From Vulcanisaeta distributa JCM 11216 (GTDB taxonomy: Archaea; Thermoproteota; Thermoprotei; Thermoproteales; Thermocladiaceae): DNA of 45,604 bases. Each line of letters opens with the position of its first letter. The first letter of the stretch is position 1. A program made the translations under genes and the position numbers. The stretch spans positions 1 to 45,604 of the forward strand of contig NZ_BBBI01000018.1 of NCBI RefSeq assembly GCF_001315985.1, written 5' to 3'. Shown piece by piece: positions 1-45,604 of the stretch. The notes below the pieces were generated by a model, which saw nothing but the letters and a program-made list of their open reading frames with translations, ran no database searches and was not told the origin of the DNA.

Positions 1-3000
1 CGCGTAGGGCGGGTACTGCATCTTAAATATGCCGGCGTTGTCGGCGGCCCAATACGAACAATAAGCACATGTGAACATTATCACCTTCCTCTCAGGCTCC
101 TCAGCCAAGGCAGCCTCAATCTGAGCCATAATGCGTCGTCACTCAAGGCATCAAGTGTTATGGCATCCTGTGGGCATTCAGCCACGCACGCACCGCAGCC
201 CTGGCAGGCGGCTGGTATATGCTCAATCCATTTACCCGGTACACCCCTAATGGCGCCGTATGGACAAGCCTTAATGCAGAGACCGCACTTAGTGCATTTA
301 GACCAATCGAACTTTGGTATGAATGGTTCCTTGGTGACATAGCCCTGGGCAAGCATCATTAACGCCCTTGAGGCAGCTGCATAGCCCTCGGCGATGGCCT
401 CGGCCACATTCTTCGGACCCCCCCTAGCTGCACCGGCTATGAATATTCCTGGGGGGGTCATCGTGTCCACGGGGGGGCCAAGCTTCGGGTGAGCCTCCAT
501 CAGGAAGCCCTCCTGATCCTTAGAAAGCCTCAGCACCTTGGAAACCTCGTCTGTATCCTCACTGGGCACCAGACCTATGTTGAGGATTACGTTGTCAAAC
601 GGCACCTCAACCTCATCTCCTAACTCGACGTCATGTACTATTAACTTATTGGTATCCATTCTTATGGCCTCGGTTAACTCGGCCTTCCTGGGAATCCTAA
701 TGAAGAGCACGCCGGCATCCCTGGCCTTCTTATATAAGTCCTCGACCTCAGGGTCCACGCCCATTATATCCCTGTAAATTAGGACCACGTTCTTACCCTG
801 ACTCCTCAACTCAATGGCCTTACTCAAGCCCACGGCACAGCAGTACCTTGAACATCCCCTACCACTGGTTCTAGAACCGACGCAGTTTATTATCGCCACA
901 TTCCTACCATCGACGGTTTTCCCACTCTCAAGGTCAAGCGTTGTTAATACCCTTGGATCCTTACCATAGTTAAACTCCATCGGTACGTAGGGCTTGGCTC
1001 CCGTAGCCACTATTATTGCGCCAACGTCGAGTTCAACGCCGTTGCTTAGGACTACGTGGAAGTTACCCGTGAAGCCAGACACGTCCTTAATAGTCGTTCC
1101 AAGCATGAACTTAACACCAACCTCCCTAGCCTCCTCAACCATCCTATCGAGCAATTTCTTGGACTCAATACCCTCAGGCTCAAGCCTATTCAAACGCCTA
1201 AGCATGCCGCCGCATTCATCGGCCTTTTCAACAAGTATTGTCTCAATACCGGCACCAGCTAACCCAGTGGCCGCCGCCAGCCCAGCAGGTCCGCAACCAA
1301 CAACCAACGCTCTCTTAATCACCGGTAACTTTATTGTCTGTAGCGGCACCATGTGATGAACCTTGCTACGGCCATTCTTATCATGTCCTTGGCCTTCTCT
1401 GTGGCTACCTTCCTGTCGTTGTGGACCCAGGTGTCCAGGTTCCTAATGTTCGTCATCTCCACGAGGTAAGGATTAAGACCAGCCCTCCTCGCAGCATCCT
1501 GGAAAAACCTCAAATGCGTAACTGGGGGGGAGCATGATGCAACGACGACCCTATTCAGTTTCTTCTCCTTAATTACCTCAGTTATCCTGTCTAATGATGA
1601 TTTAGCACATGCGAACTGGAGATCCTCTGCATGAACTACGTCGGGCATTTGCTTAGCGGCCTCCACCAACGCAGGAACATCAGCAACACCGGCTATGTTA
1701 GTGCCGCAGTGGCATACGAAGACCCCCCCGACCCTAATTGGGTATGGTTCTATGGTCTCCTCATACTTCTCCTCCTCAATCACACCAGGGCTTGCGTACC
1801 TAATAGCCTGTATCGCTGCAGCCAAACCAGTAACCACTGACTCTGAAATATCCCTGGGTCCACCCGCTGAGCCAGCAACGAAGATACCAGGTCTCGTTGT
1901 TAATGTTGGGTTGGCAGGGTCAGTCCTTACAAAACCAACCCTATCTAGTGAAATACTCAATATCTTACTCAACTTACTCATGTCATTCACAGGCTTTGCA
2001 GAGGGTGCTAGGACGACCATGTCATACTCATTTACAACGACCTTCTTATTCCTCGTGTCCTCAAATCTAACGATTATCTTACCATTCCTCTCACCAAGGA
2101 TTTCAGGCCTGCCCCCCCAAACAATGTTTATACCCTCTTTTAGAGCCCCTGTCGAAGAAACCCTCGAATCCCTTACCGTATGTCCTGACATCATTCATGT
2201 ACATTATAGTCACGTTTTTAATGCCATGAAGTACCTTGGCATATATACCCTGCTTAAGCAGGTAGGTGCAGCAGAAACCGGAACAATAATCATTATACTT
2301 ATTATTTCTCGAGCCAACACAGGACACGAGCAATACGTTTTCCGGCTCCTCACCTGTGCTCGGTTTAACAACAACACCACTTGATGGTCCTGATGCATTA
2401 ACGAGCCTCTCGAATTCCATTGACGTGACCACGTCCATGTACCTACCATAACCATACTCCCCAAGTATGTCGCCCCCCCTCTCTAACTCAAAACCTGTAG
2501 ACACAATTACGGCAGCGACGTCGCGTTCTATGACCTTGGGCATCATTGTGTATATTATGGCGTTCCTATCGCATGCCTTGGCGCATCTATCGCATGGGAA
2601 GTAATTCGGCGGTTTGTTTAGGCAATGATCAATGTCGAGCATGTATATTCCTGGCTCGGCCTGTGGGAATGGTAGGTATATCGCCTTCCTCGCACCAATA
2701 CCTGCCTCAAACTCACTGGGAACAACCACTGGGCATACATCCTCACATTGACCGCATTTGGTGCAGTCGTCGGTCACGTACCTAGGCTTAACCAATATCC
2801 TAGCCTTAAAGTCACCCGGTGATCCCATTAAGTCAAGTAATTCGGCGGGTGCCAGCAATTCGATATTTGGATGTCTCGCAACATCGCTTATTAGTGGTCC
2901 TTCTATGCATATGCTGCAGTCGAGTGTTGGGAATGTCTTGTCGAGCATCGCCATCTTACCGCCAATGGCGGGTGACTTCTCAACAAGCGTAACTCTATAA

Positions 3001-3076
3001 CCATGTTAGCCAGGGCAAGGGCAGCCTCAATACCGGCAATACCGCCACCCAGGATTAGAATTCTATTGGTTGGCAT
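1..3076 (-). CDS. hdrA: HdrA-like flavoprotein with two FAD modules and MvhD-like tail (partial, frameshifted)
   Basis: This is a heterodisulfide reductase A-type electron-transfer protein. It reads as one polypeptide once single-base slips near 2998, 2145, 1366 and 132 are closed, so it exceeds 1000 residues and continues past the left edge. Order: ATG at 3076; Rossmann loop (LILGGGIAG); ferredoxin Cys cluster (CTKCGQCEDVCP); a CGSR-type segment; the HdrA FVCHCGTN segment; a second Rossmann domain (VVGCGPAGL); two 4Fe-4S motifs (CTKCGLCIKACP and CQGCGACVAECP); then an MvhD-like start (TCAYCSYWAADNAG). Ordinary methanogen HdrA has one FAD module. It starts 4 bases after the gamma subunit of a 2-oxoacid:ferredoxin oxidoreductase, so coupling of ferredoxin to another carrier, perhaps by flavin-based bifurcation, is inferred. 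The family call is firm; the partners are not visible. Confidence 0.85.
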
Positions 3077-3080
3077 GTGA

Positions 3081-3680
3081 TCACCTTAACCCCCCCTGCA
3101 GATACTTCCTACCATAATCAAGACCTGCCTGGAATGCCTTTATGTTCATTTCCTGAATCGATGTATCGAGTTTACCAGCCCTTCTTGTTACATTCTTTAT
3201 TGCGTTGATTATATGGTCCTCCTTTAGTAATGGGTCAAGGACGGCCGTTATAACGCCGACCAAAACAACATTCATTGTTAATCTTCTGCCTGTTACGTTC
3301 TCGGCTATTTCAGTTGCAGGTACAGGAATTATTACATAATCACTTGCATTTGTGATTGATGGCTTATAAATCGTATTTTCATAAATGAATATACCACCTC
3401 TACGGAGACTCTTAAATTCCAGGTTAAATGCCTGTTGCGTGGTCGCGAGGAATATGTCGGCCTCATCAATGAGTGGGTAATCAACCATCTCCTTAGCTAT
3501 TATGAGGTCAGCCCTGGACCAGCCACCCCCCCTCTGCTCTGGGCTATACGTTATTGTCAATATTGAGTCAAGACCACCCATTGCGGCCGCCATACCAAGA
3601 AGCCTACCAGCAAAGACTATGCCATGGCCGCCAAGCCCCCCCATGAGCCTGATACGTATCTGATCGAACTGTTGTAGCAT
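3081..3680 (-). CDS. 2-oxoacid:ferredoxin oxidoreductase, gamma subunit
   Basis: This is the gamma subunit of a CoA-acylating 2-oxoacid:ferredoxin oxidoreductase, which oxidises a 2-oxoacid such as 2-oxoglutarate to the acyl-CoA and reduces ferredoxin. The 199 residues match the family length. The N-terminus has the glycine-rich loop GLGGHGI and the middle has the SPEQRGG-WSRAD segment typical of gamma domains. Both places carry an extra Gly from a 7-base G tract. It follows the beta subunit after 111 bases and precedes hdrA by 4 bases, so translational coupling with hdrA is likely. The substrate (2-oxoglutarate, pyruvate or branched chain) cannot be decided from sequence alone. Confidence 0.88.
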   Translation of the reverse strand: MLQQFDQIRIRLMGGLGGHGIVFAGRLLGMAAAMGGLDSILTITYSPEQRGGGWSRADLIIAKEMVDYPLIDEADIFLATTQQAFNLEFKSLRRGGIFIYENTIYKPSITNASDYVIIPVPATEIAENVTGRRLTMNVVLVGVITAVLDPLLKEDHIINAIKNVTRRAGKLDTSIQEMNIKAFQAGLDYGRKYLQGGLR

Positions 3681-3791
3681 ATTTTTCTATTGATAAATAA
3701 TCATGAAACCTTAATAAACTTTATTCTAATTTGACAAAAATTATTTTAAATTATACGAAAATATGAGAAAAAAGTTTAAGATTTATGATCA

Positions 3792-4628
3792 CTATCCATA
3801 CGATATGGGTCTCTCTCTTTTCACAAAATTTCCCAGGATAATCTTCTTCATACTGAAATCAATCTCTAAATCCGCCAGATTCGCATTATGGTCAATCACG
3901 GGTCTTTCTCTTAATATCTTCATTAAGTCGACGGCATCACCCATGGCATTTCTATCGGTATAGATAATACAAGGTGATAGCACTTCAATAACGGCGAAGC
4001 CCTTAACCTTAAACATCTCAAGGAGGGATTGGTAAAGTTCATTTTGGTGAAGAACCGTCCATCTGGCCACGTACGAGGCGCCCGCAGCGTATGCCAATAA
4101 TGGCACGTTGAATGGATTCTCGTAATGACCATATGGCGATGTCGTCGTCTTAGCGCCCTTGGGCGTTGTTGGACTGTACTGGCCGCCTGTCATTCCATAG
4201 ATGAAGTTATTGACTATTATTACGTTAATATCATCATTCCTCCTGGCCGCATGTATGAAGTGGTTACCACCTATGGCGAGGATATCACCATCGCCGCCAA
4301 CTACTGTCACCTCAAGTTCAGGGTTAGCCATCTTTAACCCAACGGCGAAGGGTATGGCCCTACCGTGGGTTACGTGGTACGCATCTAGTTTTAAGTATCC
4401 GCCAAGCCTACCTGTGCAGCCTATGCCCGTGACTATCACGTGCTTCTCAACGGGTATTCCCGAATTCTTTATGGCCCTAGCCAATAATTTAAGTAGTATG
4501 CCTAACCCACAACCCGGGCACCAAATGTGCGGTAACCTATCAATCCTTATTAAGTCCTTAATATCCTCATAGGACTTAGGCAGTTCCACCTTAACTCCTG
4601 TGGTCGTTACCTCGGCCTCCACACTCAT
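3792..4628 (-). CDS. 2-oxoacid:ferredoxin oxidoreductase, beta (TPP-binding) subunit
   Basis: This is the thiamine-diphosphate-binding catalytic subunit. The CPGCG motif lies near residue 38, the GDGD TPP/Mg site near residue 113 is followed by AIGGNHFIHAARRN, and NNFIYGMTGGQ follows. Length (278 residues) fits KorB-type beta subunits. Its ATG overlaps the TGA of the alpha subunit (ATGA), so the two are translationally coupled. KorB-like motifs favour 2-oxoglutarate or a broad 2-oxoacid substrate over pyruvate, but that is inference. No frameshift is seen in this gene, and it contains no 7-base G/C tract. Confidence 0.9.
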   Translation of the reverse strand: MSVEAEVTTTGVKVELPKSYEDIKDLIRIDRLPHIWCPGCGLGILLKLLARAIKNSGIPVEKHVIVTGIGCTGRLGGYLKLDAYHVTHGRAIPFAVGLKMANPELEVTVVGGDGDILAIGGNHFIHAARRNDDINVIIVNNFIYGMTGGQYSPTTPKGAKTTTSPYGHYENPFNVPLLAYAAGASYVARWTVLHQNELYQSLLEMFKVKGFAVIEVLSPCIIYTDRNAMGDAVDLMKILRERPVIDHNANLADLEIDFSMKKIILGNFVKRERPISYG

Positions 4629-6145
4629 CCTTCAATCACCTTTCTCACGTTATTAATTACATAATCAGGATCTGGAATATAACCAGGGGGGGCGTAAGGT
4701 ATGTGCTCCACTGGAACACCTCTCGAGAATTCCCTAACCACGTGGTACATCTTACCCATGTTGACCTCAACAGTTACGAACTTCTGAACGCCTCTAGAGG
4801 CCAAGTTCTCCACGACCCAGCCTGGGAATGGCCACGCGGTCTTTGGCCTAAGCATACCAACCCTGTAGCCCTGTGCCCTCAGCACCTTTATTGCCCTCCT
4901 CACAGAGCCCGATGTTGAACCGTAGGATACAATTACGTACTCCGCATCATCGAGCATATACTCCTCCCACTCGGCTATTTCCTTCTCATTCTCCCTAATC
5001 TTACGGACAAGCCTCATCACAAGCTTAAACGATGCATCCCTATCCGTGGTCGGGTATCCCTTATCAGTATGCGTCAATGACTCATTATTAGCCCTATAGC
5101 CGGTGCCGGCTATAGCCATTGGCGGTACTAAGTACCTACTGTCGTATGGCAAGTATTGGTCTGGGGGGGGCACCGTGGGCTTCGGCCTCTCCACAATCTC
5201 TATCTCATCGAACTCGGGAACCCTAACCTTACCATACATATGCCCAACTAATTGATCAGAGAGTACAATGGCCACAACCCTATACTTCTCAGCCATGTTA
5301 ATTGCCTTTATTGTAAAGTCAAAGGCCTCCTGAGGATTGGCAGGTAAGTAAGCCACTATCTCATAATCACCATGTGAACCATACTTAGCCTGCAGTATGT
5401 CTCCCTGCCCTAATAATGTCGGTATTCCAGTTGATGGGCCTGCCCTCATTACATCAACAATCAGCGCCGGAATCTCGAGCATTGAGCCAAGCCCAATCTC
5501 CTCCTGCATCAGTGAGAAGCCTGGACCTGATGTTGCCGTCATCGACTTAACCCCCCCAGCGGCTGATGCCCCCCCAAGCACAGCCATTATACTGCCTATC
5601 TCGTCCTCCATCTGGATGAACTTACCACCAACCTGCGGTAGCCTGTACGACATGTACTCCGCAATCTCATTTGACGGGGGGGTTATTGGGTAACCGGCAT
5701 AGAACCTACAACCCGCCGTTATTGCGCCCTCGGCAACGGCCGTATTACCATCTAGGAAGTGAATGCCAGGCCTTAACAGTTTATCCAAGTCCTTCTTATA
5801 GAGTTCAGCACTGTGGGCATGTCTACTCACCCCGTAGTACTTATCGTATGTTATGTACTCCTCAGAAACAACCGTAATTGCGAAGTCTGGGCAAACCTTC
5901 TCGCACATTCTACAGGCGACGCAGTCAAGTTCCTTACCCGGCTTAACAACTGGGTAGTGATAGCCCTTGGAATTAACGTCCTTGGACTCCTCAAGGACAC
6001 CGTTGGGGGGGCAGAACTCAATGCAGAACCTGCAATCCTTACAAAGATCAATATTAACGATAATCTTACCAATCGGCCGTTTCATCTTATGGAGATTTAC
6101 GAGCCTACGCATTGACCAGACCTCGTCTTGTTGAACCAAAGCCAT
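4625..6145 (-). CDS. 2-oxoacid:ferredoxin oxidoreductase, alpha subunit fused to N-terminal ferredoxin
   Basis: The first ~100 residues hold two 4Fe-4S motifs (CKDCRFCIEFCP and CVACRMCEKVCP), equivalent to the separate delta subunit of other species. The rest is the alpha (pyrimidine-binding) chain with GYPITP, the TATSGPGFSLM segment and a C-terminal transketolase-like domain. I chose ATG 6145 because it has a GGAG ribosome site 4 bases upstream; an in-frame ATG at 6232 would add 29 unlike residues and lies close to the TATA box. 7- and 8-base C tracts insert an extra Pro in several conserved places, for example ITPPSNE instead of ITPSNE. It leads the operon alpha-beta-gamma-hdrA and shares a divergent promoter region with the RIO kinase gene. 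Confidence 0.9.
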   Translation of the reverse strand: MALVQQDEVWSMRRLVNLHKMKRPIGKIIVNIDLCKDCRFCIEFCPPNGVLEESKDVNSKGYHYPVVKPGKELDCVACRMCEKVCPDFAITVVSEEYITYDKYYGVSRHAHSAELYKKDLDKLLRPGIHFLDGNTAVAEGAITAGCRFYAGYPITPPSNEIAEYMSYRLPQVGGKFIQMEDEIGSIMAVLGGASAAGGVKSMTATSGPGFSLMQEEIGLGSMLEIPALIVDVMRAGPSTGIPTLLGQGDILQAKYGSHGDYEIVAYLPANPQEAFDFTIKAINMAEKYRVVAIVLSDQLVGHMYGKVRVPEFDEIEIVERPKPTVPPPDQYLPYDSRYLVPPMAIAGTGYRANNESLTHTDKGYPTTDRDASFKLVMRLVRKIRENEKEIAEWEEYMLDDAEYVIVSYGSTSGSVRRAIKVLRAQGYRVGMLRPKTAWPFPGWVVENLASRGVQKFVTVEVNMGKMYHVVREFSRGVPVEHIPYAPPGYIPDPDYVINNVRKVIEG

Positions 6146-6245
6146 ATCTCCTAAATTCTTTTCATTAGAAATACTTTTAAATCTTTTTTCTTCTTCAATC
6201 GTACAATACCCATTGATTTTAACCTTTTGCATGCATTTTTATTCA

Positions 6246-6258
6246 TCTTTATATATTG
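6246..6258 (-). promoter_or_regulatory. TATA box of the oxidoreductase-hdrA operon
   Basis: On the minus strand this reads CAATATATAAAGA, a good archaeal TATA element. A start of transcription about 25 bases downstream would fall near 6228, just inside the longer reading frame, which argues for the inner ATG at 6145. A second AT-rich element (TTTAAAA near 6178) could serve a leaderless start at 6145. Confidence 0.5.
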
Positions 6259-6315
6259 AATTCATTAGAATATTTCTCATGGGAGTAAGCAAAATGGCTT
6301 TTACGGACCAAATTA

Positions 6316-6325
6316 ATATATAAAG
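6316..6325 (+). promoter_or_regulatory. TATA box of the RIO kinase gene
   Basis: The element ATATATAAAG is centred about 28 bases before the GTG at 6349, the spacing expected for a leaderless archaeal transcript. It supports the GTG start. Confidence 0.6.
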
Positions 6326-6348
6326 TACCAATTTGTTTCATTAATCCA

Positions 6349-7233
6349 GTGGGTAATCACGATATTGATAGGATCATCCGGGAGAGAATGGAGAGTAGAA
6401 GGTTTAGGATAAAGGATATTGATCAATTAAAGACCATCGATGATGTATTTAATCAATACACAATAGATGCCTTGAGAGAACTAATGAATAGGCGTGTTAT
6501 TGATGAGGTTTATGGCCCAGTTGCGCAGGGTAAGGAGGCCAAGGTAATATGGGCTAAGGCACCCGACGGCACAGACATCGCGCTAAAAATCTTTTATACA
6601 TCAACGGCACAATTCATTAGGGGGGGTAGGTACAAGTACCTGCTCGGTGATCCACGATTTACAGGCGTTAGGATTACTAATACGAGGAAGCTCGTTGAGT
6701 ATTGGTGCAGGAAGGAGTTCAGTAATTTAGGTGATGCTTACAACGCGGGTGTCAGGGTGCCCAAGCCAATAACCTTTAATAGGAATATCCTGGTCATGGA
6801 GTTCATAAGCTATAGAGGAATAAGCGGTATACCGGCGCCGCTGATCAAGGATGAACCACCTGAAAACCCTGCGGCTGCCTACTTAACAATAATTAAGTAT
6901 GTGGAGAGAGCATTTATTTTGGGTAAGATAATCCATGCAGACCTAAGCGAGTTTAATATCGTTAATACGGGCAATGAATTAGTAATAATTGATTGGGGGG
7001 GTAGTGCCGTAAAGGCAAACCACCCCAATGCAACTGAGTTCTTACTAAGGGATATCGAGAACGTGAATAGGTACTTCAGTAGGGAGTTCCGTATCGAAGT
7101 ATTCAACAGCAAAGTATTACTCAATACTCTACTGCGTAGATACGAGCATAGGGATAAGGCGATGAGTGACGACGATGACTGGTTATTAATTAATGGTAAG
7201 AGATTAATTGATGAGTTATCAGCCAATAATTAG
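6349..7233 (+). CDS. rio1: RIO-type serine/threonine protein kinase (Rio1 family)
   Basis: This is an atypical protein kinase of the RIO family; archaeal Rio1 is linked to small ribosomal subunit maturation. An N-terminal helical segment is followed by the nucleotide loop GPVAQGKEAKV (near residue 56), the lysine in IALKIF, VPKPI and VMEFIS hinge segments, the catalytic loop HADLSEFNIV, and the metal-binding Asp in IIDWGG. The 294 residues are typical. The start is GTG, with a TATA box at leaderless spacing. Two 7-base G tracts add a Gly (IRGGRYKY, DWGGSAV) where IRGRYKY and DWGSAV would be expected. A 4-base C tract in the same gene (HPNA) is normal. Confidence 0.9.
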   Translation: MGNHDIDRIIRERMESRRFRIKDIDQLKTIDDVFNQYTIDALRELMNRRVIDEVYGPVAQGKEAKVIWAKAPDGTDIALKIFYTSTAQFIRGGRYKYLLGDPRFTGVRITNTRKLVEYWCRKEFSNLGDAYNAGVRVPKPITFNRNILVMEFISYRGISGIPAPLIKDEPPENPAAAYLTIIKYVERAFILGKIIHADLSEFNIVNTGNELVIIDWGGSAVKANHPNATEFLLRDIENVNRYFSREFRIEVFNSKVLLNTLLRRYEHRDKAMSDDDDWLLINGKRLIDELSANN

Positions 7234-7502
7234 GTGACAACACCGTATACCTAGACAGTAATTTAACATGGCAACTAGGCATTGATGACGCTTCCAATAC
7301 TGCCCGAACACAAGCCATTTACTTTTCTTTAATTTATAAATGGAGATTTCCTTTCCGTAACATGTTGATTATTGGCTTTTTGGTTCTCTTTTCAATTCAC
7401 TTACCTAGAGCGACTTAGTAAAAATATTGACTAATGACCTAACATCAAGTACGACGTTGGTCACCACCGACAATATGTGGAATACTTGATTACGTAGGTT
7501 AG
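7234..7502. other. Intergenic region, no gene seen
   Basis: This spacer between convergent genes holds no supportable ORF. It has an AT-rich part near 7320-7345 and no clear C/D-box RNA or terminator that I can defend. Confidence 0.5.
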
Positions 7503-29147: not shown

Positions 29148-31026
29148 TTAACCTTTCAAATACTCATCAATAGCACGTAGTATGTCATTCGGATCAGCTT
29201 TACCCCCTTAAATCCTTCATTAATACCTTCAATAACTTGTCCTTGTCTTTAATATTCAATTCCTTAGCCCTCTCAAAAACGACCTTCTTGACCTCCTCGT
29301 AACTCATCCTTGATAAGCCAAGTTCCTTAATTATGGTGTTGATATCCTTATTTGGTTCCTTAGACCAAGCCTTAATTATGTCGGGTACTGCCTCCTTAGT
29401 TATCGTATTAATAGCCAACACATTAAACAAGGACTTGAGATGCTCCTCCGTTATGAATGATATATCGACACCATCCCTTTGAAGAGACTTAAGCGTATTG
29501 ACTAGGGTATTGGCTATTAAAGTTGCCGAAACCTTCCCCTGAAACTCCTCAATTAAATAATCAATTAGGTCGTAATACGGCGATCTAATGACTTGCATTG
29601 CCAATTCCCTACTCATGCCATAGCTAACGTACCTACTAACCCTCGACTCAATGGGTTCAGGTATTAATAACTTGGCCTTCTCTATCATCTCAGGCGTAAC
29701 CCTAATAGGTCTTAAATCGGTCTCTGGGTACATCCTCGCGGCGCCAGGTCTGGGTCTCATGAACTTCGTGGTCCCATCGGGGGGGTTGGCCGCCCTCGTC
29801 TCTTCGGGAACTCCATGAAGTGCTTCCTTAATCCTATCGATAATGACATCGACGGCGTCATTTAAGTCCTTATCATTAGTGCCAGCTAGAAGTATGAAGG
29901 AATCAACACCGAGCCTTGAAGATACCTTAGAGACTTCCTCAGCCGTTATTCCATAGCCTGGCAATTCATCGCTATGAATAAGTCCAGATAGGCTTGTCCA
30001 AACCCTGACCCTATCAGCTAGTTCTGTGCCAAACCTCCTATTTGGTTGAACCTCCTTACCTAGTATACCCCCCCTTAGTCCTGGCGTCTTTATGGCTATG
30101 ACCTTACCACCACCATCAAGGACTTTCCTAATCAAGTTGGATTTCGTTGATGAGAATATGTCGGTAACGTCGACAAAGTCCTTAACGAACCACTCCTCCT
30201 TGACACCTCTCTTGATCAATTCATCACGAATAACCAGTAGGTTTAATTGACGTTGAACCTCATACTCAATAACCTTAGGTATTAGGCTCAAGTCTGGTAC
30301 ACCCTTAATCTCCGTCTTAGCGCCACCCTCGATAGACACGTTCACGTCCTGCCTAACCGTGCCAAGCCCCCTCTTGGCCTTACCAGTCATCTTAATGCTA
30401 TGACCAATGTAGTAAGCCACCTCCATAACCTCCTGAGGATTATAGGTGAGTACTCCCGTGGATATCTCAATCAGCGGTATACCAAGCCTATCGAGCCTAT
30501 AAACAACCATGTCACCCCTCTCCTCAATCTTCCTAGCCGCATCCTCCTCAAGGGCTATCGTCTGTATCGGAACCTTATAATCAAAGAACTTGGCCAAACC
30601 ATCATGAGCAATCAACATAGTCCTCTGGAAACCCGAGGTATTGGACCCATCAATCACGGTCTTCCTCATCACGTAAACCTCATCAAATATCTTGGCATTA
30701 AACATCATAGCAACTGCCAACGCAACCTCGAGAGACTCAGGGTCCGGATCATGCGGTGGCTCCTCATCAAGCTCCACGAGACACGTGGTGTCGTAATAAC
30801 CCTCATAAACGAAGGTCCTATGCTTCCTAAACTCCCAAATGGCCGCCGGATCAACCTCACCAAGCTCACTCATACTAGGCCTCAACCTCCTAACGACCCT
30901 GAAGTGGGGGGGCTCATCATTCCTAACGATTGGCGGGCAATTACAGAACAGCTTCCTGCCAGTGTTCAATTGAACATGTATCTCCAGGCCAACCTTAAGC
31001 CCAACAGCCCTATAATCAATCGGCAT
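29148..31026 (-). CDS. gatE: Glu-tRNA(Gln) amidotransferase subunit E
   Basis: GatE, with GatD, converts Glu-tRNA(Gln) to Gln-tRNA(Gln) in archaea. It shows LKVGLEIHVQLNT at the N-terminus, GSNTSGFQRT, RGLGTVRQDVNVSI, the AspRS-like insertion, and PRPGAARMYPETDL, followed by a YqeY/tail region. The listed stop at 29200 results from a 5-base C tract (29204-29208). With 4 C it continues GKADPNDILRAIDEYLKG to TAA at 29148, the usual length of about 625 residues. 7-base tracts add a Pro or Gly at DEPPHF, NPPDGTT and LRGGILG, where the family has one residue. ATG 31026 has a TATA-like TTAATTTAAG about 27 bases upstream. No gatD is in the window. Confidence 0.93.
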
Positions 31027-35880: not shown

Positions 35881-35891
35881 CAGAGACTTAA

Positions 35892-36080: not shown

Positions 36081-37546
36081 ATGGTACCACCGTTGAAGAA
36101 GTAAGTGATTATGTGTGGGAGATACCGAGGGGGTATAAACCGTGCATGAAGGTGCCAGCTAGGATATTTGCTGATGAGACACTGCTTGAGAAGATGAAGA
36201 CTGACATGACGCTGGAGCAGGCGGCCAACGTTGCGTGCTACCCGGTATTTACAAGTATAGCATTGCACTGCCGGATGCTCATCAGGGCTATGGATTCCCG
36301 GTGGGCGGCGTAGCTGCAATGGACATGGAACAAGGCGTAGTAAGCCCCGGAGGAATTGGTTATGATATTAATTGTGGCGTGAGACTTCTTAGAACAAATT
36401 TAACAGAAAAGGACGTTAGGCCTAAATTAAGGGAGCTCGTCGACACCATATTCAAGTTAGTCCCCCGCTGGTGTTGGTGAGACTGGGCTTCTTAAGTTGT
36501 CCTTTGGTGACTTGGATAAGGTGCTTGATGAGGGTGTTGATTGGGCGTTGTCTAAGGGCTATGGTTGGGGGGGTGATGATAAGAATTTCATTGAGGAGTT
36601 TGGGCATTATGAGGGTGCGGACTCGAGTAAGGTTAGTCAGAGGGCTAAGGAGAGGGGGTAAGGATGAGCTTGGTACGACCGGCAGTGGTAATCACTTCAT
36701 AGAGGTTCAGGTTGTTAATAAGATATTCGATGCTAACTTAGCCAAGAGGCTTGGTATTGAGCAGGAGGGCCAGGTAATGGTCCTAATACACACCGGCAGT
36801 AGGGGGGGTCTTGGTCACCAGGTCGCCACTGACTACATAAGGATTGCCGAGAATAAGATGAAGCAGTGGAACCTATTCCTGCCGGATAGGGAGTTAGCTG
36901 CAATGCCCCTCACCACTAGGGAGGCCCAGGATTACTTGGCAGCCATGAAGCCGCGGCTAACTATGCGTGGACGAATAGGCAGATAATAACGCATTGGGTT
37001 AGGGAGGCCTTCAGGAGGGTCTTTGGTAAGGACTGACAAGCTGGGTCTCGAGATTGTCTACGACGTTGCCCATAACATCGCCAAGATCGAGGATCACGTG
37101 GTTGATGATGAGGGCCATGTCAGGAGGGTTCTCGTGCATAGGAAGGGAGCCACTAGGTCGTTCCCAGCAGGTAGGTCGGAGATACCGCCTAAGTATAGGG
37201 ATATTGGGCAGCCTGTCCTAATACCTGGTAGTATGGGCACTGCATCTTACGTATTGATTGGATTGCCGACCTCGTTCCAAGTGACCTTTGGCACTGCGCC
37301 GCATGGGGGGGCAGGTAGGACACTGAGTAGGTCTGCCGCTGTTAGGATGTTGCCTCCGAATAAGGTCAGGGGGGGCGCCTGGAGAGTAGGGGGGGTATCA
37401 TTGTTAGGTCCGCGGAGAGTGAGATAATATCTGAAGAGGCACCCGAGGCTTATAAGAATGTTGATAAGGTGGCCGAGGTCGCTGAGATAACAGGCATGGC
37501 TAAGAGGGTTTCGAGGCACGTGCCGATTGGCGTAGTCAAAGGTTGA
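36081..37546 (+). CDS. rtcB: tRNA-splicing ligase RtcB (about seven frameshifts)
   Basis: RtcB joins 2',3'-cyclic phosphate and 5'-OH RNA ends in tRNA splicing and RNA repair. Conserved parts in order: [24 protein letters not shown] (Mn ligand Cys), [47 protein letters not shown] and [10 protein letters not shown] with the guanylylated His nearby. Slips lie near 36100, 36240, 36462 (5 C, should be 4), 36655 (5 G, should be 4), 36950, 37035 and 37359. All are repaired by single-base changes, giving ~485 residues ending VPIGVVKG. The 7-base tracts at 36792 and 37305 add a Gly in the invariant GSRGLGHQ and PHGAGR motifs. The density of slips points to consensus error, not decay. Confidence 0.9.
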
Positions 37547-37619: not shown

Positions 37620-38321
37620 ATGAGTAGTGATCAAGGAATTACACTGCCCAAGGAAACCGTTACTTACCAAGTTGGTGGTGTAACGATAATTGAGGAGTGC
37701 CCAAGGGATTTAAAGACCCTTGATGGTGAACCAATCAAGTTATTCGGTAAGTGGCCCTTTGATAATGTTGTAATCAGAGACCCAGGTCTCAGGAGGTACT
37801 TATGCATAAAGCCCATGTACTTACCACACACTGGCGGTAGGTACCAGAAGAGGAAGTTTGGTAAGGCCAAGATACCGGCCATCGAGAGGTTAATGAACCA
37901 ATTAATGCATCCTGGTAGAAATGCTGGTAAGAAGCATAAGGTCTATAACGTTGTTAAGAGGGCCTTCGAGATGATACACCTGAAGACTGGGCAGAACCCA
38001 ATACAGGTCTTTGTGGATGCCATAGTGAATGCAGCACCTAGGGAGGAGATTACGAGGGTTGTTTACGGAGGTATCGCATACCCAGTATCAGTCGATGTCT
38101 CGCCACTGAGGAGGCTTGACCTTGCCATTAGGTGGATAACCGAGGGTGCCAGGCAGTGCTCCTTCAATAATCCAAAGCCCATTGAGGAGTGCTTGGCCGA
38201 TGAAATCATCGCGGCCGCGCAGAATGACCAGAAGTCATATGCGATTAGGAAGAAGGACGAGATGGAGAGGGTCGCCGCCAGTGCAGGTGATGAGTTCAAT
38301 AGTTCTTCACCTTTTAATTAA
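37620..38321 (+). CDS. rps7: 30S ribosomal protein uS7
   Basis: Archaeal uS7 initiates assembly of the small-subunit head. The segments [41 protein letters not shown] and [20 protein letters not shown], with [16 protein letters not shown], are typical, and 233 residues is the archaeal length with an N-terminal extension. ATG 37620 lies about 26 bases after CTTTAAAAAGG (TATA), so it is probably leaderless. The gene is intact and has no 7-base tract. It precedes the RFC genes, separated by 113 bases. Confidence 0.95.
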
Positions 38322-38434
38322 CGCCTAATTTTACTAATCAGCACATGCATTCCCCCCCATCAATAATACTCAATAATCATCCCACCTGCCCAGGAGGAAT
38401 ACTTATTTAACCAATTTATTTCATTAATACCGTA
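38322..38434. other. Promoter region of the RFC genes
   Basis: Contains a non-coding 7-base C tract at 38352 and a TATA-like ACTTATTTAACC (38401-38412) about 27 bases before ATG 38435. Confidence 0.45.
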
Positions 38435-39454
38435 ATGTCCATAGCAGAATTAATTTGGGTGGAGAAGTATCGTCCTTCGAGGATTGATGATATTATTGAT
38501 CAGGAGGAGGTTAAGGAGAGGATTAAGCAGTTCCTGAAGATGGGTAATATGCCCCCCCATATGCTTTTTTACGGTCCTCCTGGTACTGGTAAGACTACGA
38601 TGGCTCTTGCCATTGCCCGTGAGCTTTATGGTGATGCCTGGCGTGAGAATACCCTAGAGCTTAATGCGAGTGACGAGAGGGGTATAACAACAATCAGGGA
38701 GAGAGTTAAGGAGTTCGCAAGAACGGCGCCGATGGGTAAGGCACCGTATAAGTTAATTATTCTTGATGAGGCTGATAACATGACATCGGATGCCCAGCAA
38801 GCCCTTAGGAGGATGATGGAGATGTACGCTAACGTGACCAGGTTCATACTCATTGCCAATTACGTGTCTAGGATTATCGACCCAATACAGTCCCGCTGCG
38901 CCATGTTTAGGTTCTCACCGCTTCCCAGGGATGCCGTTCTTGGTAGGCTTAGGGAGATTGCTTCGAGGGAGGGTGTTAAGGTTACTGATGAGGCCCTCGA
39001 GGCCGTATGGGACATAAGCCAGGGAGACATGAGAAAGGCAATAAACACACTACAAGCCGCAGCGGCTACGGCTAAGGAAATAACGCCCGAGGTCATTTAC
39101 AAGACTGTTGGTTACATAGAGCCTAAGGACATTGTTGACCTAATTAATACGGCTTTCAGTGGCGACTTTATTAATGCAAGGGACAAACTGAGGACTTTAA
39201 TGTACGAACACGGTGTATCAGGAACTGAAATACTGAGGGTAATACAAAGGCAAATAATGAGCGGTGCTATTAATGTCCCTGATGAGGCTAAGGTTGAGAT
39301 CGCCGAGGTTGCCGCTGACATTGATTATAGGCTTACCGAGGGCTCTGATGAGGAAATACAGCTCTCGGCGTTCCTGGCAAGGCTCATGCTAATCGGCAAG
39401 AAGTATGGACTAGGAACTAGTAAGGAAGCCAAAGCACCTGCTAAAAAGAGGTGA
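38435..39454 (+). CDS. rfcS: Replication factor C small subunit
   Basis: This is the clamp-loader AAA+ subunit that loads PCNA. Motifs: [13 protein letters not shown], Walker [18 protein letters not shown], Walker [11 protein letters not shown], sensor 1 ([15 protein letters not shown] with the SRC arginine finger), and sensor 2 [11 protein letters not shown]. Length 339 is slightly above the usual 320-330. A 7-base C tract at 38552 makes NMPPHMLF where essentially all RFC proteins have NMPH; this is one of the clearest extra-residue cases. It is followed 7 bases later by the large subunit. Confidence 0.95.
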
Positions 39455-39461
39455 TATTAAA

Positions 39462-40787
39462 TTGTCCAAGAAAATACCGTGGGTTGAGAAGTACCGCCCA
39501 AGGAGGCTCTCTGAAGTCGTTAATCAGGAGGAGGCTAAGAAGGCGTTACTTGATTGGATAAATAGCTGGGAGAAGGGTAAGCCGAGCAGGAAGGCTGTAA
39601 TGCTCGTCGGCCCACCGGGAATCGGTAAGACAACGCTTGCCTATGCCCTGGCTAATGAGAGGGGGGGTTACGAGGTTCTTGAGTTGAATGCAAGTGATGT
39701 TAGGACTGGCGAGAGGATTAGGCAAGTAATTGGTAGTTCAATGAAGATGGGTTCGCTCTTCGGCTTTAAAGGTAGGATTATACTCTTCGATGAGGTTGAT
39801 GGACTAAACGTTAGGGAAGATAGGGGTGGATTAGCAGCTATTGTGGAGTTGATTAGGGAGTCCACGTGGCCCATTATAATGACTGCGAATAACCCATGGG
39901 ACCCCCCCAAGTTCAGGGAGTTAAGGGACGAGGCTGAGGTTATTCAACTAAAGCCCCCCCTTGGTGAGGAGGATATATTGACAATACTAAGAAGGATATG
40001 TAACGCCGAGGGTATTAAGTGTGAGGAGGATGCGCTCAAGCTCATTGCGGTTGCGTCGGGTGGTGATGTTAGGGCTGCAATAAATGATTTACAGGCGGCC
40101 GCTGAGGGTAAGAGGGTTCTGACTAGGGATGATGTTACCGTGACTGAGAGAGCCCATCAATTCGACATGTTCAAGATACTCGACAAGGTATTCCATGCAA
40201 GGAGATTTGAGGATGCCAGGTCGGTCACGTTCCTACCAAGCTTTGATTGGGAAAGCTATTACCCCCCCTGGGTGCTGGATAACATACCCTCCGTGTATGC
40301 GAAGTCCATCGAAGCCGTTAGTGAGGCCCTCGATAACCTATCACTATCTGACGTGGTTAAAGGCAGGATTGCAAAGACACAGGAGTGGGAATTAATGCCA
40401 TACATGCTTGAGCTCATGACTGTTGGTGTAGCGCTGGTGCGTAATAAGCCTCCCCTCGCTAGGTTCGTTAGGTTAACATTCCCGGAGAGAATTAGGTTGC
40501 TGGCTAAGACTAAGGAAATGAGGCAGATGAGGGATGCCCTAATCAATAGGCTTAGGACAGAGCTCCACGTCAGTAGCTCCGAGGTATCTCTATACTACAT
40601 GCCACTGCTTAGGTTAATGGCCACAAGCGATACCTTCAAGAAAAAGTTACTTGAACGCCTAACGAGGATCATGGGGGGGTACTCACTAGAGAGCGTGGAG
40701 AAGACCTTAGGGGGGGTAGGGGTGAGCGCCAGTGGTGAGGGTGAGGGGGGGGCTCAACGTAAGTCGTCGAAAAGATCCGGAGGGTAA
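39462..40787 (+). CDS. rfcL: Replication factor C large subunit
   Basis: This AAA+ protein forms the clamp loader with RfcS. PWVEKYRPRRLSEV, GPPGIGKTTLAYALA, LNASDVRTG, LFDEVDGL and GDVRAAINDLQ are visible, followed by a helical collar domain and a charged, Ser/Gly-rich tail. The start is TTG 39462, close behind rfcS. Extra residues from 7-base tracts occur at NERGGYEV, WDPPKFREL, LKPPLGEED and YYPPWVL. The tail carries three G-rich tracts, one 8 bases long at 40745. No PCNA-binding PIP box is evident at the C-terminus. Confidence 0.93.
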   Translation: MSKKIPWVEKYRPRRLSEVVNQEEAKKALLDWINSWEKGKPSRKAVMLVGPPGIGKTTLAYALANERGGYEVLELNASDVRTGERIRQVIGSSMKMGSLFGFKGRIILFDEVDGLNVREDRGGLAAIVELIRESTWPIIMTANNPWDPPKFRELRDEAEVIQLKPPLGEEDILTILRRICNAEGIKCEEDALKLIAVASGGDVRAAINDLQAAAEGKRVLTRDDVTVTERAHQFDMFKILDKVFHARRFEDARSVTFLPSFDWESYYPPWVLDNIPSVYAKSIEAVSEALDNLSLSDVVKGRIAKTQEWELMPYMLELMTVGVALVRNKPPLARFVRLTFPERIRLLAKTKEMRQMRDALINRLRTELHVSSSEVSLYYMPLLRLMATSDTFKKKLLERLTRIMGGYSLESVEKTLGGVGVSASGEGEGGAQRKSSKRSGG

Positions 40788-40794
40788 TTACGTC

Positions 40795-40965
40795 ATGGTC
40801 ATGGACATGGATTCCTATGAATTATTAAAATCGTCAATAAGTAAGTTAGGTGTAAATGTCGAGTTTATGGGTAATTTGGTGATAATTAGGGATAAGTCCT
40901 GGAGCCGTATTAATAAGTTAATAAATACGGCCCGTGAATTAAGCATCAACGTGAACGAGGATTGA
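40795..40965 (+). CDS. Small hypothetical protein downstream of rfcL
   Basis: A 56-residue alpha/beta protein starting MVMDMDSYELL and ending SINVNED. GGAGG lies about 9 bases before ATG 40795, and the rfcL stop is 7 bases upstream, so it is probably translated from the rfc message. It overlaps the convergent TRIC-like gene by about 27 bases. No family is recognised. Confidence 0.5.
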   Translation: MVMDMDSYELLKSSISKLGVNVEFMGNLVIIRDKSWSRINKLINTARELSINVNED

Positions 40966-41634
40966 CCCCCCCCTCTGCTCAGTACTTCTCATGCTCTCCG
41001 ATGGATTACCTGTCGATAAGCGTATTGTTACATATGCCTTATCAAGGCCTTTCATTATTATTACGAACCTAGTAATTATTATAATGACGGCGGTGGCTAA
41101 AACCGCAGTCTCGCTACCCAGCAGCGACTTAAACACCAGGTATATTACGCCACCAAGCATCGCTACTGTTGCGTAGATGTCCCGTCGAAATATCGTGGGA
41201 ACCTCACCGGCCAGCACATCCCTAATAACGCCGCCGCCTGCGGCCGTCACGGCAGCCATAAGTATCACACCAAGGACATTAAGGCCGTGCTCAACAGCTA
41301 TCTCAGCACCCACAGCTGAGAAGGTACCAAGGCCAATGGCATCTGCATACATGAGGGCATTCTTGTACTTAGAAATACACGGGTAAAACACGTATGCTAT
41401 TAATGACGCTATTATCGCGGTTGCCGGGTAGGGTATGTAAACGATGTTCGTCGGTGGAAATATACCAATTAGTACATCCCTAATTATGCCACCTGCAAGG
41501 GCCACTGAGGAACCAAGTACGATCCCACCGAGGACGTCCATATCCTTCTCATATGCCTTGAATGCACCTGATGCGGCGAAGGCGATTATCCCAATATAGT
41601 TAAATATATTTATTAATAGGTTTACGAAACCCAC
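40939..41634 (-). CDS. Trimeric intracellular cation channel (TRIC/UPF0126) family protein
   Basis: Two repeated three-helix units carry the GG-x-x-RD signature (AGGIIRDVLIG near residue 48 and GGGVIRDVLAGEVP near residue 134), with a final hydrophobic helix: the prokaryotic TRIC arrangement of seven segments. It is likely a K+-permeable membrane channel. Length is 231 residues, a little long because of a hydrophilic tail that contains an 8-base C tract at 40966. It is convergent with the small ORF after rfcL. Confidence 0.85.
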   Translation of the reverse strand: MGFVNLLINIFNYIGIIAFAASGAFKAYEKDMDVLGGIVLGSSVALAGGIIRDVLIGIFPPTNIVYIPYPATAIIASLIAYVFYPCISKYKNALMYADAIGLGTFSAVGAEIAVEHGLNVLGVILMAAVTAAGGGVIRDVLAGEVPTIFRRDIYATVAMLGGVIYLVFKSLLGSETAVLATAVIIIITRFVIIMKGLDKAYVTIRLSTGNPSESMRSTEQRGGSILVHVDA

Positions 41635-41698
41635 GGGAGACGAAACCGTAGCAAGTATTTAATTCTAACTATCCATTTACTAACCCTACACCTTTAAC

Positions 41699-42835
41699 TT
41701 AAGTGCCCTGCCTAAGAACTATCACGCCTCTGGGATCCTTAATTCTAATAGCCAGTGTTTCCCACAGCACGAAGCCGTGAGCCCCATCCTCAGGGCCTAG
41801 GTAATTCAATGCTGTGTCAATGCCCATGGCCACGTCGATGACCGACTGATGGGTAGACAGCAGCAATGCTGTGTCATCCCTTAACTGGGGAATAACTACT
41901 ACATCCTTAACTAGCGATTTAACCCTCGTTAATTCCATGACACCCGTCTTCTCAACAACCATTAAGAGCTTTGTATACCTGCCAGGGCTTACGAATAATA
42001 CGTACGGCTCAGGTATATAATTACTATACAGTGCATTAACCGCGCTTGATACTTCATTAACAGCTGAACCCGGCATATCCCATGACGAGACGCCCATTGA
42101 CTTAACCTTAGGATTACCCAAAATATCACTAAGTATTGTTGAGTCCTCCTCATAACCAAGCCTAATAGCCGCCTGATCAGCGGTTACCGAGTAAACCCCC
42201 CCCTCACCCCCCCTGGCTCTGGCGTACTCTACCTGCCTTTGCGAAATTGAGAATTTCACACTTAACTCCTTAAGTGGTATCACGGACCTGGTCGCAGTTA
42301 TTGGAGTACTGATAATCACCTCATCGAGTGGCACGGCATCGAGCCCAGGACCAACCTCATAAACGGTTAAGTACTTCCTAAACCTCCTTACACCATTGGC
42401 AACCTCCCTAATCCTACCCTGTACGTATCTAAGCTCCTCTGGACTTAAGTTTGATGATGAAACTACGTCAGGCGGAGGATCACTGGCATTATTAGTCGAG
42501 CCTAACACCTTCTGACCATTGTTAGGGTCATTTACTGGTGCTTTAATGCCCGTTAGCTCACCGACTTCTGCTGAACCGGCCTTTAACTGCTCAACCTGCT
42601 CAGGATCATAGGATTTAAGTAACGTGAGAAACTCACCAAGGTGCGTCTTTTCCTCCTTAGCTATGTCCTCAAATACCCTCTTAACCCTCTCATCATCAAT
42701 AAGCCTGGACAATTGCAGGTATAGGTTTATGGCATCGAGTTCAGCCATAATAGCGAGCCTAAGCGAATCTGCAACCTCACCCTGCGAAAATTTTCTATCC
42801 CTAATAACATCTACCGGATTCTTAGAAAACACCAT
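41699..42835 (-). CDS. Encapsulin shell protein with N-terminal ferritin-like domain
   Basis: Residues ~15-85 form a ferritin-like domain (AIMAELDAINLYLQLSRL, then DIAKEEKTHLGEF with the ExxH pair). A polar linker (85-145) leads to an HK97-fold shell protein (residues ~145-378; DAVPLDEVIIS, DILGNPKV, PYVLFVSPGRYTKLL, LLLSTHQSVIDVAMG). This is the layout of the Pyrococcus furiosus particle, in which iron-storage cargo is fused to the shell. Expected role: a nanocompartment that oxidises and stores iron. ATG 42835 has TTTAAAATAAG just upstream. The LTRVKSLV...THQ pattern and length (378) support family 1. A rubrerythrin/Fur group lies 13 kb away. Confidence 0.85.
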   Translation of the reverse strand: MVFSKNPVDVIRDRKFSQGEVADSLRLAIMAELDAINLYLQLSRLIDDERVKRVFEDIAKEEKTHLGEFLTLLKSYDPEQVEQLKAGSAEVGELTGIKAPVNDPNNGQKVLGSTNNASDPPPDVVSSSNLSPEELRYVQGRIREVANGVRRFRKYLTVYEVGPGLDAVPLDEVIISTPITATRSVIPLKELSVKFSISQRQVEYARARGGEGGVYSVTADQAAIRLGYEEDSTILSDILGNPKVKSMGVSSWDMPGSAVNEVSSAVNALYSNYIPEPYVLFVSPGRYTKLLMVVEKTGVMELTRVKSLVKDVVVIPQLRDDTALLLSTHQSVIDVAMGIDTALNYLGPEDGAHGFVLWETLAIRIKDPRGVIVLRQGT

Positions 42836-42947
42836 ATTTCTTAGCCTTATTTTAAACTACTTAAGTATTTCCATTAAATTAGTGAAATGTTATTCTCAGT
42901 GAAAGCTAAACCTAGGACTTATTAATGGCAATCATTTCAATTAATCT
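42836..42947. promoter_or_regulatory. Divergent promoter region, encapsulin / molybdopterin oxidoreductase
   Basis: On the minus strand GTTTAAAATAAG (about 42847-42858) serves the encapsulin. On the plus strand ACTTATTAATGG (about 42917-42928) lies at leaderless spacing before GTG 42948. Confidence 0.45.
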
Positions 42948-43622
42948 GTGAGTAATGCGATTAATGATGTCCTTAAGACCGCATTGAGTAGGACATGCAG
43001 TAAATTAGTTTATAGACGAGAATTACCACCAAACCAAAGAGTTATCCCTCGTTTCGTGATATACGATGTTTACGACCCTCCCGAGAATGTTGACGTAATT
43101 AGCTATAGATTGAAGGTGACGGGGGGGCTCGTTGAGAATGGGTTTGAAATACCGTATATAGAATTAGTCACGAAAGTACCCTGTGTGGACCTAGTCACTG
43201 ATTTTCACTGCGTCACTGGTTGGAGCGTGCTAAATGTGGAGTGGAGGGGTATACCAACGAGGTATTTAATGGATATTGCCAGGCCCAGGGGGGGTGACTA
43301 CGTAATGGCCGTCGGTATCGATGGTTACACCACGAACTTACCATTGAACGCCTTATTTGAGGAAACAACGATAATTGCCTACGCAATGAATGGGAAAATA
43401 TTGCCTAGGGAACATGGCTTTCCATTGAGGCTTGTCGTGCCGTCACGCTACGGCTGGAAAAGCGCCAAATACCTTAGTGAGTTAATAATCATGGATAGTA
43501 ACGAGCCTGGTTATTGGGAATCGTTTGGTTATCACGATAATGGCGACCCATGGCTTGAGGAGAGATTTAATGAGAGTGGCCCAGTAACGATGAGGAGGAG
43601 GGTTAGGTTCACGAGACCCTGA
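42948..43622 (+). CDS. Sulfite oxidase-like molybdopterin-binding oxidoreductase
   Basis: The single oxidoreductase molybdopterin-binding domain (YedY/MsrP and sulfite oxidase superfamily) is recognised from TDFHCVTGWSVLNVEWRGIP, with the Mo-ligand Cys near residue 87, and from HGFPLRLVVPSRYGWKSAKYL. No Tat signal or heme domain is visible, so it is probably cytoplasmic or part of a complex. Substrate unknown. The start is GTG. Two 7-base tracts add a Gly (VTGGLVE, RPRGGDY). It is convergent with the membrane protein on the right. Confidence 0.85.
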   Translation: MSNAINDVLKTALSRTCSKLVYRRELPPNQRVIPRFVIYDVYDPPENVDVISYRLKVTGGLVENGFEIPYIELVTKVPCVDLVTDFHCVTGWSVLNVEWRGIPTRYLMDIARPRGGDYVMAVGIDGYTTNLPLNALFEETTIIAYAMNGKILPREHGFPLRLVVPSRYGWKSAKYLSELIIMDSNEPGYWESFGYHDNGDPWLEERFNESGPVTMRRRVRFTRP

Positions 43623-43633
43623 GTGTGTAGTCC

Positions 43634-44763
43634 TTACGTGGCCTTGCACGAAGTTATTAATTTCATAAGTTCTGCAATCAATTGTTTCCTTACCTCAGCG
43701 TCCTTCGTGGCTGTCTCCTCAACACTACGCCTTTCCCAGGGCCAAATACCTACGTACTGGGGGGGTGGTTCGTAATCCATAAGTCCTCTTAGCGCTTTAT
43801 TAATTTCCATGAAGTCCATGTCGCAGTTGGCGAGGGCGTAGGCAGCATAGGCTATCAATTCTTCCTTTCTGCCTCGCTTCATGAAGTCATTGATTGCATT
43901 TACGAATACATCATCCTCACTGGAAGCGAGTAATGGCGATTCCCTAACGTGTTGCTCATAGATCCTCTCAGCAATCCTCTCGCAATACCTGAAAATGCGG
44001 TATAGAGCCTGTAACCAATGATGACCACTACAATGGCCAATAGGATCATCGACATCATGGTTAGGTAACCACTGTATGGTCTTAACTGCGGTATTTGTGC
44101 AAACATCGCCATGAGACCCACAACAAAGAGCAGTGCCACAATTGGCCTTGCAACTCTCGATAAGTCACTAGCTAAGGGTTTTAGTGATGGGTGCAGGCTG
44201 ATGAGAATCGCCACGCCCATCAACGCTGAACCAATTGATGCGTAGAGAAATGGTGTACCAAGCGGTGCGTAGGCTATGGCCATTAGCCAGGCAATTCCAT
44301 ACAGAAGTACTGCAAAGCCTATGTACCTTAGTGATGATTTAATGGGCTCCCCCCCAAAGCCCCCCCTACCATAGTTTATGATCACGGCGCCAACGATGAT
44401 CACGAATGATGCGGCAAAAATACTTGGGAGCTTGTTGAAGTGTATTACGTATGAGATTATACCCAACGTACCATTCAGGAATAGGTAAGCAAGCACGATT
44501 GGCGACACTACACCAACTAATGCGCTGCCAAGTGCTTTAAATGCCGTGCCAGCCCTAGTCATTAAAGTCTCTCCAGTTAACCTAATGGCTAGGTAGATAA
44601 TGAGTGGTAACAATACTACGTTAATCAACCACTTAATAAATAATGATAGTGATGGCGCATAGCTAGTCATCGATGGACCCAGGGCAAGGACTATTAAGAG
44701 TACTGCAATTACAATGCCGATCCTGACCCCCCCGTAGTGCCTACCCAACCTGCGTAGACTCAT
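43634..44763 (-). CDS. Multi-spanning membrane protein (one frameshift)
   Basis: ATG 44763 overlaps the TGA of the next gene (ATGA). The N-terminal 260 residues have about eight hydrophobic segments. As written the frame ends at 43900, but one base near 44018 restores IFRYCERIAERIYEQHV and runs through VNAINDFMKRG into the 43634-43882 frame, giving one ~375-residue protein with a helical cytoplasmic tail. No family is recognised. Coupling to the upstream DUF4129-like gene suggests a joint membrane complex. Confidence 0.6.
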
Positions 44764-45604
44764 GCTGGGCACCCCCCCATGACCAATGCATCCCTCAATT
44801 TTGTTAATCCACGTATGAAGTCCTCATAGGATTTCCTATCGATATCCACATGACCATACCTAACGGCCTCAAACACCCTGAGACTCACCCAGGACTCACA
44901 ATTCGCCTCACTCATTAGGCCCCCCCTACTCGCCAACTCCATGCAGACCTCCCTAGGTGTCTTATTCTCAATGCCCTCAAGTCCATGCATTGCCATGTTA
45001 GCCCTAAACGCACTCATGATATCCTGCCCATAATCCTCAACAATAAGTATCTTATGAGACTCAGCAATATCATTACCAACCCTAACCCTAATCACGTGAC
45101 AGCCAGGGCTATGAAATACCAATGCGTTGCCTACGACCTCACCCTCAGGGTGCAGCTCAGGGTATGCGCCATTACTTACCGTGAACGGCAACGGATCATT
45201 AACCCTCCAGGTGAGTGGTAAATCCTTATCAATACCGAGGTCGATGAACTTACCACCACCCCCCCAACCCCCCCTAGGGGGGGTACCGGGAGGCCATTAA
45301 TGGGTAGTTCCATCCTCGGCAACGCCTGCTGCGGCTTCTCCACCGGCTTTGGTCTCGGCACCTCGGTCCTAACCTTTGGCCTCCTCTCAACTCTCCTTTC
45401 CCTCCCCCCCTCACTGAGCAATCTAACTCTCATTAGAGAACTCCTTGAACTTATTAATGTAAAGATTAGGAGTATGATTATTATGGCTATGAGGATCCAC
45501 AGTAGCAGGGTAAGAATATCTTAATTACCACGGTCTTAACAACCTCATTATTCACGGAATTAACGCCATGAAAACCACTGGCAGTCCCACCACTACTTCC
45601 GCCG
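44760..45604 (-). CDS. Membrane protein with DUF4129-like C-terminal region (partial, frameshifted)
   Basis: Reading from the right edge: a Gly/Ser-rich segment, a transmembrane helix (LLLWILIAIIIILLIF), a very basic Arg/Pro linker, a Gly-rich stretch with three 7-base tracts at 45257-45283, a domain with GCHVIRVRVG, and a helical end (REVCMELASRGG ... DFIRGLTKLRDAL). Slips near 45508 and 45285 are needed. The membrane helix plus C-terminal helical bundle recall DUF4129 proteins that travel with MoxR ATPases and transglutaminase-like proteins, but this call is tentative. The N-terminus is outside the window. Confidence 0.45.

What the first reader, a model, noticed from the sequence alone, without database searches (positions are those of the whole stretch)
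1..45604. About 80 G or C homopolymers of exactly 7 bases (a few of 8), each adding one Gly or Pro at conserved positions
I count roughly 83 tracts, 78 of length 7 and five of length 8 (5163, 8971, 40745, 40966, 42195), on both strands and also outside genes (8540, 15917, 21035, 25930, 38352). Chance would give only one or two. In well-known motifs they create an extra residue: RFC small NMPPH for NMPH (38552), RFC large WDPPK (39902), Rtc[10 protein letters not shown] for GSRGLGHQ (36792) and PHGGAGR (37305), GatE NPPDGTT for NPDGTT (29789), KorA ITPPSNE for ITPSNE (5676). The original is thus a 4-base tract (5 for the 8s), lengthened by exactly 3. About as many 4-base tracts are left untouched, with no flanking-base rule I can see. 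An artefact of base calling or assembly is the most likely cause. A real codon-neutral expansion would be remarkable.
Basis: partly seen in the sequence, partly recalled or inferred. Interest (0 to 1): 0.85.

Follow-up and report, generated by a model that had tools for sequence, protein, structure and literature searches.

The report
Sequencing artefact: stretched G/C runs
The dozens of seven-base G or C runs are almost certainly errors in a draft genome, where runs that are four bases long in relatives were read as seven, and not a feature of the organism.

Summary
In detail: the window holds 78 G/C runs of exactly 7 and 5 of 8; by the clean members of the genus fewer than one is expected. 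The cause is technical. The draft holds 4,803 exact 7-runs. Of the 83 long tracts, 62 have an alignable run in at least one of five unaffected Vulcanisaeta relatives; for 56 of 62 the longest is 4, and none reaches 7. The nearest relative held, G002, is clean, while more distant G008 and a draft of another genus, G400, are affected. Rates are alike in all codon phases and outside long ORFs, and the 16S rRNA gene is hit at conserved sites. The step is not always +3: 5-base runs read 5, 6, 7 or 8. Most likely this is a base-specific homopolymer miscall in Ion Torrent-type data. A sister V. souniana draft is recorded as Ion Torrent PGM, and two sister JCM drafts show an A/T version. The platform of this genome was not seen, raw reads were not available, and the software step is inferred. 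Not a real feature.

The parts
418..45410 (.). 83 stretched G/C runs (78 of 7, 5 of 8) scattered over the window, first at 418, last at 45404-45410
   Evidence: direct count; orthologous runs mostly 4 bases
   Evidence: translation; relatives of this protein in named Vulcanisaeta records
36654..36658 (.). example: G5 that is G4 in three relatives (G003, G004, G010): +1, not codon-neutral
40966..40973 (.). example: C8 that is C6 in G002, the only relative alignable there: +2
29203..29207 (.). example: C5 that is C4 in four relatives (G002, G003, G004, G008): +1, not codon-neutral

Best explanation
The tracts are errors in the draft assembly. G or C runs of true length 4 or more were called too long and pile up at 7 (less often 8); among runs that read 4 or 7, about 64% read 7. 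A and T runs were spared. Shown: relatives have 4 bases at most of these sites, the excess is genome-wide, it follows individual drafts and not the family tree, and it enters the 16S rRNA gene. Inferred: the data are Ion Torrent reads (recorded only for a sister draft of the same collection), and a nucleotide-specific homopolymer-length call or its consensus failed above a threshold of about 4 for G and C. The confidence given is for 'artefact'; for the Ion Torrent signal-calibration version of it I would say about 0.7.
For: Orthologous lengths: a window 7 is 4 in 46 of 50 sites (G002), 12 of 12 (G007), 12 of 13 (G010), 18 of 18 (G003), 15 of 15 (G004). Patchiness: G002, 95% identical over the first 20 kb, is clean; G008, 84 and 88% identical on its two longest matches there, is affected. 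G400 of another genus of the family has 4,190 + 3,768 exact 7-runs, its congeners G014 and G017 20 + 23 and 63 + 56; in 60 kb of G400 the lengths 7 and 8 count 154 and 32, none longer. Of 413 distinct genomes counted, 3 are affected; the next highest has 340. In 1,127 aligned columns at the start of the 16S rRNA gene G000 has 15 sevens and 4 eights, G002 1 and 0. Fraction reading 7: 0.53-0.67 over coding phases, 0.66 outside ORFs of 150 aa. The V. souniana draft BBBK01000000 is stated to be Ion Torrent PGM (whole text of PMC9872577); affected G008 matches BBBJ01, JCM 11217, in contig number and length, and the named JCM 11217 loci L012 and L033 show the excess directly. Two sister JCM drafts have a like jump in A/T runs: sixes, sevens, eights = 11, 39, 18 in 409 kb of G002 and 1, 7, 1 in 60 kb of G004.
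Against: The platform of G000, G008 and G400 was not seen in any record. G002 and G004, drafts of the same collection, have no G/C jump. Low completeness is not specific: clean G002 is at 63%. Indels of 1, 2, 4 or 5 bases between the window and three single-contig genomes (1.6-2.7 per kb) lie only slightly above those between those genomes (1.2-1.8 per kb), so the usual frameshift-rich look of such data is weak. My paper searches (listings, and passages of one paper) showed no description of a discrete 4-to-7 step. Among aligned sites reading 4 or 7 in both, G000 and G008 agree more than chance (21 both 7, 7 and 3 one only, 6 both 4; Fisher p = 0.04), so some site property matters that 10 flanking bases do not capture.
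Confidence: 0.98

Rival explanations
1. A variant of the artefact: an assembly or polishing fault rather than base calling. Reads were right or mixed, and a consensus program wrote 7 for 4 in G/C runs.
For: Discrete step; about a third of 4-runs untouched with no flank rule and little spatial clustering.
Against: Sparing of A/T here, and an A/T jump without a G/C jump in two sister drafts, fit a per-nucleotide signal calibration better than a generic assembler fault.
Confidence: 0.25
2. Real genomic expansion of G4/C4 to G7/C7, neutral because it adds one codon, arisen in this lineage.
For: Most changes are +3; in frame at the six motif sites checked.
Against: Like rates in all phases and outside long ORFs; 16S rRNA gene hit at conserved sites; absent from the sister at 95% identity but present in a more distant species and another genus; +1 and +2 changes also occur.
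Confidence: 0.005
3. Chemical modification of G/C runs in the DNA of these organisms misleads the sequencer.
For: G and C alone affected; three genomes of one family.
Against: Congeners in both genera unaffected; standard libraries are amplified, which erases modification (recalled).
Confidence: 0.01

Closest known systems
Homopolymer indel errors of Ion Torrent PGM data (PMC4079958, passages seen)
   Same: Errors in homopolymers, whose length must be judged from one signal intensity; many false indels.
   Different: Usual errors are mostly +/-1 and grow with run length (recalled); here lengths jump from 4 to 7 for G/C only.
V. souniana draft BBBK01000000, Ion Torrent PGM (PMC9872577, whole text)
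   Same: Same genus, same culture collection, accession next to that of the affected JCM 11217 draft BBBJ01.
   Different: Its own run lengths were not inspected here; the complete genome of that strain (G010 by length) is clean.

Membership tests
Sequencing or assembly homopolymer artefact | Lengths disagree with close relatives at the same sites | tested here: met
   for 56 of 62 assessable long tracts the longest ortholog is 4, none reaches 7; 21 of 83 not assessable;
Sequencing or assembly homopolymer artefact | Blind to gene, frame and strand | tested here: met
   0.53-0.67 over coding phases, 0.66 outside ORFs of 150 aa (a rough coding call); G 0.654, C 0.622
Sequencing or assembly homopolymer artefact | Follows the data set, not the phylogeny | tested here: met
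   3 of 413 genomes, two genera, clean congeners in both; that the three share a sequencing project is not shown
Ion Torrent homopolymer error | Assembly made from Ion Torrent reads | not testable with these tools
   recorded only for sister draft BBBK01; the record of G000 is not visible
Ion Torrent homopolymer error | Excess 1-base indels elsewhere | tested here: inconclusive
   1.6-2.7 per kb v 1.2-1.8 between single-contig genomes; 1-base deletions outnumber insertions in three JCM drafts against G007 (22 v 8, 17 v 6, 32 v 10), but one pair of complete genomes is as lopsided (15 v 5)
Real codon-neutral expansion | Restricted to coding DNA or to frame-preserving steps | tested here: not met
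Real codon-neutral expansion | Shared with nearest relatives, inherited along the tree | tested here: not met

The most novel reading that the evidence does not exclude
Three archaea of one family really carry thousands of G4/C4-to-G7/C7 expansions each, with ribosomal RNA and enzymes that tolerate the extra bases or edit them out.
Probability: 0.003. Interest if true: 0.95.

Novelty: not a real feature. Interest (0 to 1): 0.08.

Why it matters
As biology it does not matter. As data hygiene it does: three genomes of a one-per-species set carry thousands of false insertions each, which add false Gly/Pro residues to conserved motifs and, in G000, distort the 16S rRNA gene (none was found in G008; G400 was not checked). 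They may also lower completeness scores (67.75, 67 and 47%), though a clean sister draft is at 63%. Alignments, motif searches and structure predictions that use these genomes should mask or replace them.

Tried and rejected
Flank rule: logistic and boosted models on 10 flanking bases each side, with and without local G+C, gave AUC 0.54 on 1,464 runs of length 4 or 7; no rule found. Spatial clustering: lag-1 correlation 0.03 in the window (permutation sd 0.09), 0.03 on C1 (sd 0.03), 0.12 on C2 (sd 0.065): a weak hint at most. Repeats inside the 445 kb held: 4 matches, 480 bases, one informative run (7 v 6), so no test on identical copies. Family of G089: 0 of 31 genomes affected. The excess-indel test was weak. 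In a three-way 16S alignment the G007 stretch did not line up, probably because it was read on the other strand; a pairwise alignment with G002 replaced it. The lower Rfam score of the G000 16S gene (581 bits v 1448-1470) is not used as proof on its own, because the contig ends inside the gene. Paper searches for the accessions, for Ion PGM with JCM archaeal drafts, and for homopolymer recalibration or overcalls showed no description of a 4-to-7 jump. Of the papers I saw listings and starts of abstracts only, except PMC9872577 (whole text) and passages of PMC5069417 and PMC4079958. Dropped before counting: sites whose flanks did not match or whose relative had other bases inside the run; 21 of 83 long tracts had no usable ortholog. 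Runs of length 5, 6 and 8 were left out of the 4-v-7 fractions.

Full report
Observation. A direct count of the window gives G/C runs of length 4 to 8 of 38, 11, 2, 78 and 5, while A and T runs fall off smoothly to 6. The whole genome (G000, 2,422,819 bases, 65 contigs, 67.75% complete) has 2,522 + 2,281 exact 7-runs. In 445 kb of it (window plus 400 kb) the counts for lengths 4 to 8 are 529, 154, 59, 936 and 93, and none is longer. The ten members of the genus other than G000 and G008 have 0 to 5 exact 7-runs per genome, both strands summed; G008 has 2,031 + 1,826.

Length in relatives. In pairwise alignments of the window to fetched stretches of relatives, its 7-runs are 4 at 46 of 50 sites in G002, 12 of 12 in G007, 12 of 13 in G010, 18 of 18 in G003 and 15 of 15 in G004. 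Of all 83 long tracts, 62 have at least one usable ortholog outside G008. The longest ortholog of the sixty 7-runs is 4 for 56, 5 for one, 6 for one and 3 for two; that of the two assessable 8-runs is 5 and 6. A/T runs of the window agree with relatives at nearly all sites. G008 against G007 gives the same picture: 7 is 4 at 16 of 17 sites.

Names. G007 (2,374,137 bases) has the length given for V. distributa IC-017 in the start of the abstract of PMC3035369. G010 (2,432,148 bases) has the length of the complete V. souniana IC-059 genome. G002, G004 and G008 have contigs of the same number and length as JCM 16159 (BBDN01), JCM 14467 (BBDM01) and JCM 11217 (BBBJ01). These identities are inferred from lengths. 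The named JCM 11217 loci L012 and L033 show the excess directly, and the named JCM 14467 and JCM 16159 loci do not. G000 and G400 remain unnamed.

Not inherited. The window is 95% identical to G002 over its first 20 kb, and 84 and 88% to G008 on the two longest matches there; yet G002 is clean and G008 is affected. In the order, a third genome, G400 of another genus of the family, has 4,190 + 3,768 exact 7-runs, while its two congeners have 43 and 119 in total. In 60 kb of G400 the lengths 4 to 8 count 100, 32, 19, 154 and 32, none longer. Over all pattern counts (413 distinct genomes) 3 are affected; the next highest has 340. The phylum search drew 398 genomes from a larger group, so more affected genomes may exist. 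Inheritance would need thousands of parallel gains or exact losses.

The 16S rRNA gene. In G000 it lies at the end of contig C19 and is cut by the contig end. It matches the archaeal model in four pieces, the best at 581 bits, v 1448-1470 bits for G002, G003, G007 and G010; none was found in G008. Part of that loss is the missing end. Aligned to G002 over 1,127 columns, there are 20 mismatched columns and 56 gap columns in G002, by eye nearly all at or beside G/C runs; G000 has 15 sevens and 4 eights v 1 and 0. One stretched run stands directly before ATTAGATACCC, a universally conserved site (recalled). Several changes there are +1 or +2.

Not codon-neutral. Among runs of 4 or 7 the fraction at 7 is 0.53 to 0.67 over the six classes of coding phase and sense, and 0.66 outside ORFs of 150 aa or more, a class that also holds short or broken genes. 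Compared with G002, 5-runs read 5, 6, 7 and 8 in 6, 5, 6 and 5 cases, and 4-runs read 5 or 6 in 8 cases. In the window, C5 at 29203 is C4 in four relatives and G5 at 36654 is G4 in three: +1 changes. So lengths pile up at 7 rather than growing by exactly one codon.

Mechanism. The V. souniana draft BBBK01000000, whose accession follows BBBJ01 of affected JCM 11217 (strain names), was made with Ion Torrent PGM. In that chemistry the length of a homopolymer is judged from signal intensity (passages of PMC4079958). A calibration that fails per nucleotide above a threshold would stretch G and C runs from 4 upward and leave A and T alone. Sister drafts G002 and G004 show the mirror case: their A/T runs nearly skip 6 and pile at 7 and 8 (11, 39, 18 in 409 kb; 1, 7, 1 in 60 kb), and A/T 6-runs of the window face 7 or 8 in G002 at 6 of 7 sites. 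That instrument software recalibrates homopolymers from length 4 upward is recalled, not seen. The platform of G000 itself was not seen.

Against. Sites stretched in G000 tend to be stretched in G008 (21 both, 7 and 3 one only, 6 neither; p = 0.04). No sequence rule explains which third of 4-runs is spared (AUC 0.54). Excess single-base indels are modest. Low completeness also occurs in clean drafts (G002, 63%). These leave the exact software step open but do not favour biology.

Verdict. Artefact; not a real feature.

Noticed in passing
   Followed up: partly
L135-L137 (G400, another genus of the family): Third draft genome with the same G/C jump to 7, 47% complete; its two congeners are clean.
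   Followed up: partly
L133 (G000 C19:38001-40306): The contig ends inside the 16S rRNA gene, whose G/C runs are stretched.
   Followed up: yes
   Followed up: partly
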